Shown: positions 20,745-24,418 of the stretch, one piece after another
Layout of the letters: the number at the start of each line of letters is the position of its first letter
Position numbering within the stretch: the stretch's first letter is position 1
Assembly (NCBI RefSeq): GCF_038049925.1
Contig: NZ_CP145809.1
Location: 3,940,599 to 4,004,598 of the forward strand
Length of the DNA stretch: 64,000 nucleotides
Reading direction: 5' to 3'
DNA from: Georgenia sp. M64
Lineage (GTDB): Bacteria; Actinomycetota; Actinomycetes; Actinomycetales; Actinomycetaceae
The notes under the pieces: model-generated
The model's database searches: none
Told to the model about the DNA's origin: nothing
The model's input: the letters and a program-made list of their open reading frames with translations, nothing else
Program-made: the position numbers and the translations under genes

Positions 20745-20882
20745 CTACTTCGCGCCGGGCGTCGGCCAGCACATCACGCACATCGTGCGCATCGCACCGT
20801 CGGACGCCGCCGTGGCGGGCGCCACCGACACGCCGACGAGAGCCGCCGCCAGGAGCACGCTGGCACCGAGCTTCTTGATCAT
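20745..20882 (-). CDS. Small secreted peptide precursor with a CXXC-containing C-terminus
   Basis: 45 residues; not recognised as a known family. The ATG at 20882 has GGGGAGGGGAG 6 nt upstream, one of the best ribosome binding sites in the window. The N-terminus is a Sec-type signal sequence: Lys-Lys after residue 2, a hydrophobic core (GASVLLAAALVGVSV) and a likely cleavage site after APATA. The mature part would be about 20 residues and contains MRTMCVMCWPTPGAK, with two cysteines three apart and a single Trp. It is divergent from a TrmB/LuxR-type regulator and shares a promoter dyad with the lanC-like/methyltransferase genes. It could be a secreted signal peptide or a substrate for the neighbouring enzymes; both are inference. 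Confidence 0.7.
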   Translation of the reverse strand: MIKKLGASVLLAAALVGVSVAPATAASDGAMRTMCVMCWPTPGAK

Positions 20883-21147
20883 GTTGTCTCCCCTCCCCGA
20901 AACTGCATGAGGCCCACGGCCTCCTTCCCTGATCATCGGGCCAGAAGCGGCCGGGAGCCGCACCGGGGCGGTGGCAACTTCCGGTCATGGCACAAAGTTC
21001 CCGCACATCTCCGTATCTTGGCGGGACCTCCGGCCTCCGTCGGCGCCGCCGGAGCGGCCCGGGGACGCGCGGGTCGCCACCCGCCTGACCCCGGCCACGG
21101 ACCGAGCCCCGTACCATCTCGACCAGAAGGCGCACGTCAGGAGAGCC
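20883..21147. promoter_or_regulatory. Divergent regulatory region with dyad operator (peptide gene / luxR-type gene)
   Basis: The operator is an interrupted dyad at 20976-20999, centred at 20987.5: outer arms AACTT and AAGTT with the core TCATGGCAC. Eight of twelve paired positions match. For the peptide gene (minus strand) a GATGAT -10 candidate lies at 20932-20937, so the dyad centre is about 62 bp upstream of the expected start. For the regulator (plus strand) TATCTT at 21014-21019 is a possible -10 and the dyad sits where a -35 would be. The core CATGGCAC recurs in front of the lanC-like gene. The rest of the gap holds nothing else recognisable. Confidence 0.5.
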
Positions 21148-22122
21148 ATGTTCGAGCCACTCGGTCTCGATGAGACCGCGATCGCGGTCTACCGCGCGCT
21201 CCTCACCTCGCCGCGCCTCACCCCGCAGGGCCTCACGGTCGCCACCGGTCTCAACCCCGCCCAGGTGCTCGCCGTGCTGGACCTTCTGGAGGAGAAGGGC
21301 TTCCTCCGACGCTCGCACAACGACCCGGGCGAGCTGCGCACCGAGTCCCCCCTCGTCGCGTTCGAACGCCTCATCGGCCGCCACGAGGAGGTGCTGCACC
21401 GCTCCCAGGAGCAGCTGAGCTCGATGCGGGCGGGCTCGGCCGAGCTCGTGGAGGAGTACCACCGCGTGCTCGAGCGCACCCGCCTCGGCCAGATCGAGCA
21501 CATCGTCGAGACCGACGAGATCGTCGCTCGGGTCCTCGAGCTCGGACAGAACGCGGAGCGGTCCGTCGATTCGCTGCTGACGACGTCGCCCACCCAGCAC
21601 CAGATCGAGCAGGCGAAGAGCGATGAAGCCGCCATGCTCGCCCGCGGTATGCGTCTCCGCTCGATCATTCCGGCTGCCGGTCGGCACGTCGATGGCGTCG
21701 TCGAATACGCCGCTTGGCTGCAGGAGCGCGGCGGCGCCGCACGGACGGTGCTATCGGTGCCGAACCAAACTCTCCTCTACGACGGCGAGGTCGCCGTCCT
21801 CATGTTCAACCACGCCGACTTCACCCGAGGGGCCATCGTCCTGTCCGCGCCGGGAGCCGTGGTCGCGCTGCAATCCCTCTTCGACCTGCTGTGGGAGTCC
21901 GGCACGGACCTCGTCGAGCCGCCCAGCATGGACGAGCTCCGGCCGGAGGAGCGTGAGCTGCTCCAGCTCCTCGGCCGCGGGATGAAGGACGAGGCCGTGG
22001 CGCGCGCCCTCGGTATCTCCATCCGCACGGTCCGGCGGATGATCAACATCCTCAGCGAGCGCCTCGACGCACCGAGCCGGTTCACCCTCGGGGCCCGCGC
22101 CCACGAGCGCGGACTCATCTAG
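21148..22122 (+). CDS. TrmB-like N-domain / LuxR-type C-terminal helix-turn-helix regulator
   Basis: 324 residues from the ATG at 21148 (AGGAGAG just upstream). Residues 1-70 form a winged-helix TrmB-like domain: LGLDETAIAVYRALLTSPRL and VLDLLEEKGFLRRS. The middle resembles a phospholipase-D-like or ligand-binding region (VEYAAWLQERGGAARTVL). The last 65 residues are a LuxR helix-turn-helix (ERELLQLLGRGMKDEAVARA, SIRTVRRMINILSERL). Proteins of this build are common in actinobacteria beside biosynthetic or small-peptide genes and act as activators. It overlaps the end of the convergent methyltransferase by 4 bp. Likely regulator of the peptide and lanC-like transcripts through the shared dyad. 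Confidence 0.85.
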   Translation: MFEPLGLDETAIAVYRALLTSPRLTPQGLTVATGLNPAQVLAVLDLLEEKGFLRRSHNDPGELRTESPLVAFERLIGRHEEVLHRSQEQLSSMRAGSAELVEEYHRVLERTRLGQIEHIVETDEIVARVLELGQNAERSVDSLLTTSPTQHQIEQAKSDEAAMLARGMRLRSIIPAAGRHVDGVVEYAAWLQERGGAARTVLSVPNQTLLYDGEVAVLMFNHADFTRGAIVLSAPGAVVALQSLFDLLWESGTDLVEPPSMDELRPEERELLQLLGRGMKDEAVARALGISIRTVRRMINILSERLDAPSRFTLGARAHERGLI

Positions 22123-23000
22123 CCGCGCTCGCCGAGGAGCTCCTCCATCCGGTCACGCGGTCCCTCGGAGCGCGCCGCCTCGACGAGGACCTGCGGGTGG
22201 CGCGGGCCGGCGTCGGTGACGCGGTGGCGGGCGACGACGTCGAACCCGGCCGCACGGAGCTCACGCACGACGGTGGCGACGGTGACCACCCGCAGGCGCG
22301 AGGTGCACACCACGACGTCCTCGGCGCCCTGCTCGATCGGCAGCACGGTCAACCGCCAGGTCGGCGAGCCGGGCTCCCAGTACTCGTGGACGCGGAAGAC
22401 CCGGCCGCTCGGTGCGACGACGACGCGCTCGACCTCCACCGGCAGGTCCTCGGCGCCGTGGTCGACGGCGCTCACGACGAGCCGGCCGTCGGGGAGGAGG
22501 TGGCGGCGGGCGCAGGCGAACATCGACGCGCGCGCCGCGGGCTCGTACGAGCCCAGGGTGGGCGAGGCCACGACGATCGCCCCGAAGCCCGCCTCGAGGG
22601 CGTAGGTCCAGGGGTCCGCCCGGACCACGTCGAAGGACGAGCGCAGCCGGGCCGGGCCGAGGGCCACCCGTCGGCGCACCGCGTCGAGGACGGCCTCCGA
22701 CCGGTCGAGCGCGGTCACGCGGCGGCCGAGCGAGAGCAGGGGCACGCTGAGGCGGCCCGCACCGACGGCGAGGTCGAGCACGGGCCCGTCGACGCCGAGC
22801 ACCACCCGCAGCAGGGCGTGGATCTCCCGGAGGTCGCCGTCGGCGACGTCGCCCAGGGTCAGCGCCCCCACGTCGTCGGTCAGCTCACGGACGTCGATGC
22901 TCCCGCCGAGGGAGGCGACGATGCGCCCGGCGTGGCCGGGGATGCCGTGCGCCGCCGCGCCGGGGTGGTGATAGGTACGAGCAACGGTCGGGACGGCCAT
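22119..23000 (-). CDS. Class I SAM-dependent methyltransferase of the peptide/LanC locus
   Basis: 293 residues. The Rossmann core starts at about residue 72 with GPVLDLAVGAGRLSVPLLSL (motif I), then VTALDRSEAV (motif II) and IVVASPTLGSYEP (motif IV region). The N-terminal 70 residues and the strand-rich C-terminus probably shape the substrate site. The start ATG follows a perfect AGGAGG, 41 bp after the LanC-like stop, so both are one transcript. Related enzymes methylate small molecules or ribosomal peptides; the substrate is not readable. Placement beside a LanC-like protein and a peptide gene favours a peptide-linked role, but this remains inference. Confidence 0.8.
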   Translation of the reverse strand: MAVPTVARTYHHPGAAAHGIPGHAGRIVASLGGSIDVRELTDDVGALTLGDVADGDLREIHALLRVVLGVDGPVLDLAVGAGRLSVPLLSLGRRVTALDRSEAVLDAVRRRVALGPARLRSSFDVVRADPWTYALEAGFGAIVVASPTLGSYEPAARASMFACARRHLLPDGRLVVSAVDHGAEDLPVEVERVVVAPSGRVFRVHEYWEPGSPTWRLTVLPIEQGAEDVVVCTSRLRVVTVATVVRELRAAGFDVVARHRVTDAGPRHPQVLVEAARSEGPRDRMEELLGERG

Positions 23001-23041
23001 GTCGGCACCTCCTCTCGGCCGGGCGGACCCGGCGGACGGCT

Positions 23042-24277
23042 CTACCAGAAGAAGGGGACGCGGCGCTCCTCGGGACCCAGGAGGGTCTCGAGGGCGATGA
23101 GGATCCCGGCGGCGCCGGAGCTGAGGTCGACCCCGGTGCGGGAGACGTCCAGGTCGGTGCCGCCCAGGAGTCCGAGCCGCTCCAGGTGGGGGCGCATGAG
23201 CGCGCGTCGCTGGACGGCGGTGTCCCACGGGGTGCGGCGCAGGTGCCACAGCGCGACGGCGGTGCCCGCCGCCCCGTCGAGGAGACCGGGCCGCTCGGGG
23301 ACGTAGCACTCGCAGGCCGTGGCGATCCACTCCTGCGCGTCGCCGAGCCAACCGGCGTCCAGGTGGCCCGCGGCCTCGCGCAGCACCATGGCGAGCCCGG
23401 CGCTGCCGTTGCCGAGGAGCGGCTCCTGCCACCACAGCGGGGAGGCGTTCGCGTCGCTGAGCGGGCCCCAGCCCAGGAGGGCCAGGTCGTGCAGGAGCGC
23501 GACCTCGATGGGGGCGAGGAGCGACTCGTCCTCGGACACCTCGTACAGGTCGAGCAGGAACAGGGCGGCTCCGGCGCCACCGCGGAGCACTCCGGCACCG
23601 TGCCGGCCGGCGCCGAGCCGGACCGTGAGCTCGCCGGCGATCGAGGCCAGGCGGTCCATGAGGGCGCTCTCGTCCAGGATCGGGGCGCGCTCGAGCAGGG
23701 CGAGGCCGAGACCGGGCAGGCCCCGGGCCACCGAGACGTCCAGCGGCCCCAACGGTGCGGTGTCGACCGTGCGCCACAGCTCCTCGGCGGCGTCCGCGCG
23801 ACCGAGACGGGACAGCGCCAGGGCCACGCCGCTCGCGCCGTCGAAGAGGCCGGGCCGACGCGGGTCCAGGCGGACGGCGGAGCGCTCGAGCCAGTCCACG
23901 AGCTCCGCCGGGACCTCGACGCCGGACTCGGCGAGGGCCCACAGCACGCCGGCGGCGCCGCGACCGAACGTCACCGCCGCCTCGCCCGACGGGCCGGGGA
24001 AGAGCCGGTCGGACCGTTCGGGGGTGGCGGTGGCGAGGATCTGCCGCACGAGGCGGTCCCGGGTCGAGCGGTAGGCGGGGGCACCGCGGTCGGTGAGGTC
24101 GACCACGGTGCCCCGCCCGCCCCGGCGGACCGGCGACCGGACCGGCTCACGCGTGAGCAGGTCGATCACCTCGCCGGAAGCAGCCCCGGACGGGACCACG
24201 AGATTCGCCATGCGGGTGCGCGACCCCGTCACCGCTGCACGGCGCTGCTCGAACGGGTGCGTCCTGGCCTCGATCAT
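23042..24277 (-). CDS. Stand-alone LanC-like domain protein (derived from class III/IV lanthipeptide synthetase C-terminus)
   Basis: 411 residues. Residues 80-95 read ILATATPERSDRLFPG, the linker that precedes the cyclase domain in LanKC synthetases. The LanC toroid follows: GRGAAGVLWALAESG, GLFDGASGVALALSRLGRAD, GLPGLGLALLER, and GLLDGAAGTAVALWHL. The kinase and lyase domains of a full synthetase (about 850 residues) are absent; residues 1-60 have no similarity I recognise. The zinc-ligand Cys and Cys-His of true LanC are replaced (QEPLLGNGSAG and GLLDGAAG), as in class III enzymes. Start ATG has GAGGGGG upstream. It heads the unit with the methyltransferase. It may bind or shape a peptide rather than catalyse zinc-dependent cyclisation. 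Confidence 0.8.
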   Translation of the reverse strand: MIEARTHPFEQRRAAVTGSRTRMANLVVPSGAASGEVIDLLTREPVRSPVRRGGRGTVVDLTDRGAPAYRSTRDRLVRQILATATPERSDRLFPGPSGEAAVTFGRGAAGVLWALAESGVEVPAELVDWLERSAVRLDPRRPGLFDGASGVALALSRLGRADAAEELWRTVDTAPLGPLDVSVARGLPGLGLALLERAPILDESALMDRLASIAGELTVRLGAGRHGAGVLRGGAGAALFLLDLYEVSEDESLLAPIEVALLHDLALLGWGPLSDANASPLWWQEPLLGNGSAGLAMVLREAAGHLDAGWLGDAQEWIATACECYVPERPGLLDGAAGTAVALWHLRRTPWDTAVQRRALMRPHLERLGLLGGTDLDVSRTGVDLSSGAAGILIALETLLGPEERRVPFFW

Positions 24278-24348: not shown

Positions 24349-24418
24349 AAACTACGAGGCGGGGAGAGCAGGTACCAGCCCTGGACGAGGCACGTCCGTG
24401 CCATGGCACGTTCATGCC
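24349..24418 (-). promoter_or_regulatory. Activator-type promoter of the lanC-like/methyltransferase unit
   Basis: A -10 candidate TAGTTT lies on the minus strand at 24354-24349, about 72 bp before the start codon. Upstream is a run of four alternating 6-bp half-sites separated by 2 bp: GGCACG (24389), CGTGCC (24397), GGCACG (24405) and CATGCC (24413). The central pair forms a perfect 14-bp palindrome at 24397-24410, centred about 61 bp upstream of the expected transcript start. Its core CATGGCAC is shared with the peptide-gene promoter at nearly the same distance from the -10. This spacing is typical of activators that contact the RNA polymerase alpha subunit. Confidence 0.55.

What the first reader, a model, noticed from the sequence alone, without database searches (positions are those of the whole stretch)
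20745..24277. Small secreted CXXC peptide, TrmB/LuxR-type regulator, methyltransferase and stand-alone LanC-like protein form one locus
Four genes that do not usually form a named pathway sit together: a 45-residue Sec-type precursor whose C-terminus holds MRTMCVMCWPTPGAK, a TrmB/LuxR-type regulator divergent from it, and a two-gene unit encoding a LanC-like domain and a SAM methyltransferase. No dehydratase, protease, transporter or immunity gene accompanies them, so it is not a standard lanthipeptide cluster. It could be a secreted peptide signal with its regulator, a reduced RiPP-like pathway, or two functions under one regulator. The peptide has Ser, Thr and two Cys in its mature part, the residues a lanthionine system would use.
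Basis: partly seen in the sequence, partly recalled or inferred. Interest (0 to 1): 0.85.

Follow-up and report, generated by a model that had tools for sequence, protein, structure and literature searches.

The report
Secreted peptide switch beside LanC-like gene
A small secreted peptide and the gene regulator next to it look like a bacterial chemical-message pair that also seems to control a leftover pair of peptide-tailoring genes.

Summary
A 45-aa Sec-type precursor (PEP), a TrmB+LuxR-type regulator (REG), a LanC-like gene and a methyltransferase form one locus. PEP, REG and the LanC-like gene occur together in 9 of 9 Georgenia genomes and one related genus (methyltransferase in 7 of 10). 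C-x-x-C-W-P is invariant in the peptides, and the peptide frame is under purifying selection. A dyad with core CATGGCA lies between PEP and REG and again upstream of the LanC-like gene in all ten, and upstream of a second stand-alone LanC gene of the same genome. They look like one regulon. In 25 of 49 loci holding more distant REG relatives, a Sec-like precursor with a Trp motif lies within 1.5 kb; same-genome controls have almost none at the same strictness. I read PEP-REG as a peptide signal with its receptor; that step is inferred. The LanC-like protein is the cyclase part of a class III LanKC and the methyltransferase is daptide-type; in two related genera the same pair sits in daptide clusters. 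This genome has no LanKC or daptide dehydrogenase over cut-off, so lanthionine formation is unlikely. I found no such pair in the open papers searched.

The parts
20745..20882 (-). PEP: 45-aa Sec-type precursor; mature part (cleavage site guessed) about SDGAMRTMCVMCWPTPGAK, 2042 Da, or one Ala longer, 2114 Da
20973..21002 (.). operator-like site 1: GGCAACTTCCGGTCATGGCACAAAGTTCCC in the divergent PEP-REG region
21148..22122 (+). REG: winged HTH (TrmB type), coiled coil, low-confidence middle part, C-terminal LuxR-type HTH
22119..23000 (-). MT: SAM methyltransferase, NCBIfam daptide_MTase 190.6 bits (cut-off 175)
23042..24277 (-). LANC: stand-alone LanC-like protein; matches positions 478-833 of 833 of the class III LanKC model; about 60-residue N-terminus of very low model confidence
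24389..24418 (.). operator-like site 2: dyad GGCACGTCCGTGCCATGGCACGTTCATGCC, centre 126 bp upstream of the LANC start

Best explanation
PEP and REG are a secreted-peptide signal and its intracellular receptor/regulator. PEP is exported by Sec, trimmed to a short C-terminal peptide holding C-x-x-C-W-P (possibly disulphide-closed), accumulates outside, re-enters the cell, and changes the DNA binding of REG. REG acts at a dyad (roughly GGCA-n9-CATGGCA-n6-TGCC) in the PEP/REG divergent region and in the promoters of stand-alone LanC-like genes, so the signal controls its own production and the LANC(-MT) operon. LANC and MT derive from the LanKC + methyltransferase pair of daptide clusters; in Georgenia LANC lacks the lyase and kinase domains, so it probably acts as a peptide-binding protein rather than making lanthionine. 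Shown here: conservation, gene order, shared dyad, Trp-motif precursors beside many REG relatives, kinship with the daptide-cluster pair. Inferred: that REG binds the dyad, signalling, re-import, binding of PEP by REG, direction of regulation, direction of the LANC/MT descent, and the role of LANC and MT.
For: PEP, REG and LANC together in 10 of 10 genomes with the locus (9 Georgenia + G007); C-x-x-C-W-P invariant in the 9 aligned peptides, the tenth (G052) being identical to the window's. The dyad is in all 10 PEP-REG regions and all 10 LANC upstream regions. A matrix trained only on the 9 intergenic sites (own site left out) gives LANC promoters of 7 of the 9 tested main loci a score that at most 1 of 238 other upstream regions reaches, and scores the second LANC gene of this genome like a training site (34.9; training 31.5-42.5). 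The precursor-plus-REG arrangement recurs without LANC: 20 different Trp-motif precursors in 21 of 49 REG-relative loci, 145,884 bp of flanks, against 0 in 285,019 bp of control; 6 of the 20 hold the motif two or three times, as multi-copy pheromone precursors do. In one Streptomyces-like genome REG, a Trp-motif precursor (DDVTWGQ) and a full LanKC are consecutive. In a second family of the order, precursors ending in WP motifs occur, one divergent from an XRE-HTH + TPR protein, the RRNPP receptor layout.
Against: No binding or expression data. REG has no recognised peptide-binding domain and its middle part is modelled at low confidence. The Georgenia peptide itself does not satisfy the two Trp rules used elsewhere (its Trp is followed by Pro and lies 7th from the end), so its kinship with those peptides rests on the shared regulator family and a Trp near the C-terminus. 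24 of 49 REG-relative loci have no Trp-motif precursor by either rule. The motif rule was written after seeing the peptides, and laxer thresholds give only 3- to 4-fold enrichment. A general dyad test upstream of distant REG genes gave no excess: 11 of 49 with 9 or more paired positions against 67 of 239 control genes. In L055 and L056 the matrix scores the LANC site weakly (2.9, 1.1; 5 of 238 controls as high), and in L053, L054 and L056 its best window is offset by 16 bp from the CATGGCA core. 4 of 8 paralogous LANC loci lack the site.
Confidence: 0.55

Rival explanations
1. PEP is an effector, not a signal: a small secreted redox, metal-binding or antimicrobial peptide whose gene is one output of REG, which senses something else.
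For: C-x-x-C is a common thiol/metal motif (recalled); REG's middle part is unrecognised, and its best fold match, TrmBL2, is a chromatin protein.
Against: Beside REG relatives elsewhere the precursors mostly lack Cys in the mature part and carry a short Trp motif, in 6 of 20 repeated, which argues for recognition of a short sequence rather than chemistry.
Confidence: 0.25
2. Reduced RiPP pathway: PEP is the substrate of LANC and MT, which modify its Ser/Thr/Cys or N-terminus before Sec export; REG is an ordinary pathway regulator.
For: Shared dyad; LANC and MT are related to lanthipeptide/daptide enzymes; the mature part has Ser, Thr and two Cys.
Against: No LanKC over cut-off in this genome and no daptide dehydrogenase over cut-off in 9 of 9 genomes. 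MT is absent from 3 of 10 genomes that keep PEP. A Sec-like signal in place of a daptide-type precursor. Among 49 REG-relative loci only one shows LANC in the few kb fetched. Cyclase Asp not conserved.
Confidence: 0.15
3. LANC is a receptor or carrier for the peptide: its cyclase-domain cleft binds PEP in the cytoplasm, and REG responds to the LANC-bound state.
For: LANC is present in 10 of 10 loci while MT is not, and dyad-bearing LANC paralogues exist; ThurKC mutants suggest the cyclase domain contacts its peptide substrate (PMC10604976, passages).
Against: REG-peptide pairs occur without a nearby LANC in nearly all of the 49 loci.
Confidence: 0.05

Closest known systems
RRNPP peptide quorum sensing of Bacillota
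   Same: Small Sec-exported propeptide gene directly beside an intracellular regulator of 250-500 aa (signature read in passages of PMC10075063)
   Different: REG has no TPR hit but a TrmB-type and a LuxR-type HTH; it is actinobacterial; Trp / C-x-x-C-W-P motifs
Daptide biosynthetic clusters (DapBCDM, DapP, optional LanKC/LanJC)
   Same: MT passes NF041820; LANC matches the cyclase part of the LanKC found next to the same MT in daptide clusters of two related genera; LanKC in daptide clusters is described (passages of PMC10036551 and PMC12338566)
   Different: No daptide precursor or dehydrogenase recognised at the locus or (dehydrogenase) in the genome; LanKC reduced to its cyclase part; peptide is a Sec-type precursor
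Class III lanthipeptide synthetase LanKC (ThurKC, 8sao)
   Same: Cyclase part related by sequence; no zinc ligands
   Different: No lyase or kinase domain; the position of ThurKC Asp771 holds D, H or R in main-locus LANCs
LuxR solos of Actinobacteria
   Same: C-terminal LuxR-type HTH, no LuxI partner seen at the locus
   Different: N-terminal TrmB-type HTH and adjacent secreted peptide

Membership tests
RRNPP system | propeptide of 10-100 aa with Sec signal beside the receptor | tested here: met
   45 aa, hydrophobic signal (own heuristic, no SignalP), 265 bp from REG
RRNPP system | receptor with peptide-binding TPRs | tested here: not met
   no TPR family among the 25 Pfam hits shown for REG, of 28
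RRNPP system | mature peptide re-enters and binds the regulator | not testable with these tools
   bench experiment needed
Daptide cluster | daptide methyltransferase | tested here: met
   190.6 bits vs 175
Daptide cluster | daptide dehydrogenase (NF041822) | tested here: not met
   0 of 9 Georgenia genomes over cut-off; best 83 bits vs 300
Daptide cluster | precursor of daptide type, ending in Thr | tested here: not met
   PEP ends PTPGAK and has no NCBIfam hit; no genome-wide precursor search was made
Daptide cluster | aminotransferase and RRE protein | not tested
   none seen by eye at the locus; no profile search made
Class III lanthipeptide cluster | LanKC with lyase, kinase and cyclase domains | tested here: not met
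   only the cyclase part at the locus; 0 over cut-off in the own genome
LanC cyclase (zinc) | Cys, Cys, His zinc ligands | tested here: not met
   aligned positions hold Ser and Leu-Asp
TrmB family | TrmB HTH | tested here: met
   PF01978 28.1 bits vs 25.6; best fold match TrmBL2, E 5.4e-07 but TM 0.25
LuxR/GerE | C-terminal GerE HTH over the Pfam cut-off | tested here: inconclusive
   22.0 vs 23.5 bits in the window protein, 28.1 in relative L092; NarL DNA-binding structures are the best profile hits

The most novel reading that the evidence does not exclude
A broad, undescribed class of peptide signalling in Actinomycetota: Sec-exported precursors carrying one to three short Trp motifs, read by TrmB/LuxR two-headed regulators, some beside natural-product genes, with Georgenia using a C-x-x-C-W-P version to drive stand-alone LanC-like proteins.
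Probability: 0.4. Interest if true: 0.92.

Novelty: new variant of a known kind. Interest (0 to 1): 0.75.

Why it matters
A gene-encoded peptide signal next to regulators, some of them beside natural-product genes, would give a simple handle (a synthetic peptide of a few residues) to test what wakes silent clusters. Views in print differ: a passage of PMC10075063 says actinobacterial signals are typically enzyme-made small molecules, while passages of PMC4748050 and PMC3466318 speak of cyclic or modified peptides and butyrolactones; in the passages shown to me none describes this pair. The dyad also predicts which LanC-like genes answer.

Tried and rejected
Lanthionine peptide made by LANC: rejected as the main reading. 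CxxCW strings near REG in L092, L108 and L117 I read as the REG start region in a shifted frame (by eye, no separate call). The second own-genome PEP hit (G000:C1:3982541) lies within the frame region of other genes and has no REG in its 3 kb: taken as chance. Weak PEP hits (84 of 151 genomes at E <= 1): of the 29 loci given (L024-L052), 9 have REG and 20 do not; the 20 are dropped. General dyad excess upstream of distant REG genes: not found. A perfect dyad CGCTTTATGCCATGGCATAAAGCG upstream of REG in L126 is a single case picked from many. Many core hits are inside genes or look like terminators by eye. Models of REG (pLDDT 61.6, pTM 0.29) and LANC (61.6, 0.68) rest on 6 sequences each and support domain identity only. 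Five genomes with weaker LANC matches (G025, G027, G033, G063, G089) were not opened. Paper searches on such pairs (plus 33 and 57 on daptides) gave no description in the listings; seven papers were opened and only passages read; subscription papers are mostly not held.

Full report
What is there. The window is part of a 4.18-Mb single-contig genome. The close REG relatives found in named genomes (58-62% identical) are 5 of 5 Georgenia, so the host, and the nine genomes of its genus, are taken to be Georgenia. REG and MT converge with their ends overlapping by 4 bp; LANC and MT are 41 bp apart on one strand.

Conservation. I searched 151 genomes of the family for LANC (17 with a match) and for PEP (84 with a match at E <= 1, mostly chance) and fetched 20 regions. 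PEP, REG and LANC occur together in 10 genomes: 9 Georgenia and G007 of another genus (the G107 peptide was read from the sequence printed). MT is beside them in 7; no MT was found in the whole genomes of G107, G133 and G007 at E <= 1e-15. C-x-x-C-W-P is invariant in the 9 aligned peptides; the tenth, G052, is identical to the window's. In the 9 pairs computed pN/pS is 0.26-0.58, and against G052 there are 4 synonymous and 0 nonsynonymous differences.

Shared dyad. Each of the 10 PEP-REG regions carries a dyad around CATGGCA about 100 bp from the PEP start, and each of the 10 main-locus LANC genes has a related dyad upstream (in the 9 measured, centre 112-148 bp before the start). A weight matrix trained only on the 9 intergenic sites was tested on LANC promoters with each locus's own site left out, against 238 other upstream regions of the same loci. 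The window LANC scores 6.9; one control is higher (15.8, a TetR-like gene by eye, beside a LANC paralogue). Of the 9 main loci tested, 7 have 0 or 1 controls as high; L055 (2.9) and L056 (1.1) have 5. In L053, L054 and L056 the best window is offset 16 bp from the CATGGCA core. The second stand-alone LANC gene of this genome (66% identical) has a near-perfect site 116 bp upstream (34.9, within the training range 31.5-42.5). Of 8 paralogous LANC loci (L070, the sister of L061, not counted) 4 have the site. The pattern drawn from the two window sites has only those two exact matches in 4.18 Mb, by construction. The bare core occurs 39 times in 9 genomes against 10 for the reversed pattern (each palindromic site once); many of these lie inside genes. 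One more site in this genome lies 126 bp upstream of a secreted S8 peptidase.

What LANC and MT are. MT passes the daptide methyltransferase model (190.6 vs 175 bits). LANC matches only the last 43% of the class III LanKC model (191 bits; the cut-off for the full enzyme is 575). In two other genera of the family (L071, L072) relatives of both sit side by side as full LanKC (848 and 866 bits) and methyltransferase (267 and 265), in clusters with daptide dehydrogenase and intramembrane protease over cut-off and a 57-aa daptide-like precursor (25.4 vs cut-off 25 in L072; 18.9, below it, in L071). LanKC in daptide clusters is known (passages of PMC10036551 and PMC12338566). Georgenia's pair therefore looks derived from such a cluster; the direction is my inference. 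This genome has no LanKC over cut-off, and none of 9 Georgenia genomes has daptide dehydrogenase over cut-off. The Asp that ThurKC needs for cyclisation (Asp771; passages of PMC10604976) aligns with D in the window LANC and with H, R or D in the other main-locus LANCs.

Beyond Georgenia. REG relatives occur in 186 of 394 sampled genomes of the class at E <= 1e-15. I used 49 loci: the 29 best-per-genome ones held, and 20 of the next 22 rows without a locus; two of the 49 (L111, L135) overlap. Small ORFs with a Sec-like start (my own hydropathy rule, not SignalP) were listed within 1.5 kb. With a strict rule (score >= 3, Trp within 2 residues of the C-terminus) there are 16, 15 of them different, in 145,884 bp of flanks and 0 in 300,020 bp from the same genomes; at the laxest score the excess is 3- to 4-fold. 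With a motif rule written after seeing them, 20 different peptides in 21 of 49 loci against 0 in 285,019 bp (binomial p 4e-10, post hoc). That rule misses L092, L114, L124 and L137, which the first finds at score 2.7; together 25 of 49 loci have one and 24 have none. Six of the 20 have the motif two or three times (GDMGWQ twice, GFDWG three times, and so on); L092, L114, L124 and the plasmid locus L209 also repeat theirs by eye. L137 ends CIGCW, close to the Georgenia motif, but the Georgenia peptide itself fits neither rule. Of 61 plasmid records with a REG relative (59 Streptomyces) I opened eight: four carry such a peptide annotated as hypothetical (L209, L210, L211, L214), L209 and L211 beside ketosynthase-type genes. 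One Streptomyces-like genome (genus guessed) has REG, peptide and full LanKC (834 bits) in a row.

Mechanism. A secreted short-motif peptide recurring beside one regulator family, with a shared dyad in Georgenia, is what a peptide signal with its receptor predicts. That REG binds the dyad or the peptide, and that the peptide re-enters the cell, are inferences. REG looks like a TrmB-type protein with an added LuxR-type HTH, its middle part modelled with low confidence. LANC may bind the peptide or a product; no catalytic role is shown.

Limits.

Noticed in passing
L217, L218, L219, L221, L222, L224, L225 (order-level hits): In a second family of the order (Arthrobacter-like, a guess) Sec-like precursors end NWWPH, GWWPN, NWWPN, GYWPF, GWWPH, GWWPNSIGKF and a double IGNWPDPM: 7 of the 9 non-self hits; L220 and L223 look like chance. 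The profile match covers mostly the signal part. No REG in the 3 kb around them.
   Followed up: partly
L232:5896-7504: The double IGNWPDPM precursor is divergent (124 bp) from a 421-aa XRE-HTH + TPR protein, i.e. the RRNPP layout, in an actinobacterium.
   Followed up: partly
L227:5620-8930, L226:2661-6283: WWP precursors lie within about 2 kb of GGDEF-EAL proteins and, in L227, beside a TPR-like protein; L228 and L229 look similar by eye.
   Followed up: partly
L207, L210:4429-4728, L211:4463-4762, L212:6056-6343, L213, L214:4529-4873, L205:7352-7732, L206:8840-9139: A ~100-aa protein (MYLVHV...EHVSVH... type, by eye) sits near REG in 6 of 8 plasmid loci opened and in L205 and L206; no Pfam hit for the three scanned, no NCBIfam hit for the two scanned.
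   Followed up: partly
L193:2179-4001 (G000:C1 near 4112448): Secreted S8 peptidase with a CATGGCA dyad 126 bp upstream in the window's genome; it could process the peptide.
   Followed up: partly
L163/L178 (G000:C1:1580218-1580247): A strong dyad of the same type near an integrase-like gene (by eye), with no clear target gene.
   Followed up: partly
L071, L072: Daptide clusters with LanKC in two other genera of the family.
   Followed up: partly
L060:3006-6591 (G107): In G107 several biosynthetic-looking genes (by eye) sit between the dehydrogenase operon and LANC.
   Followed up: no
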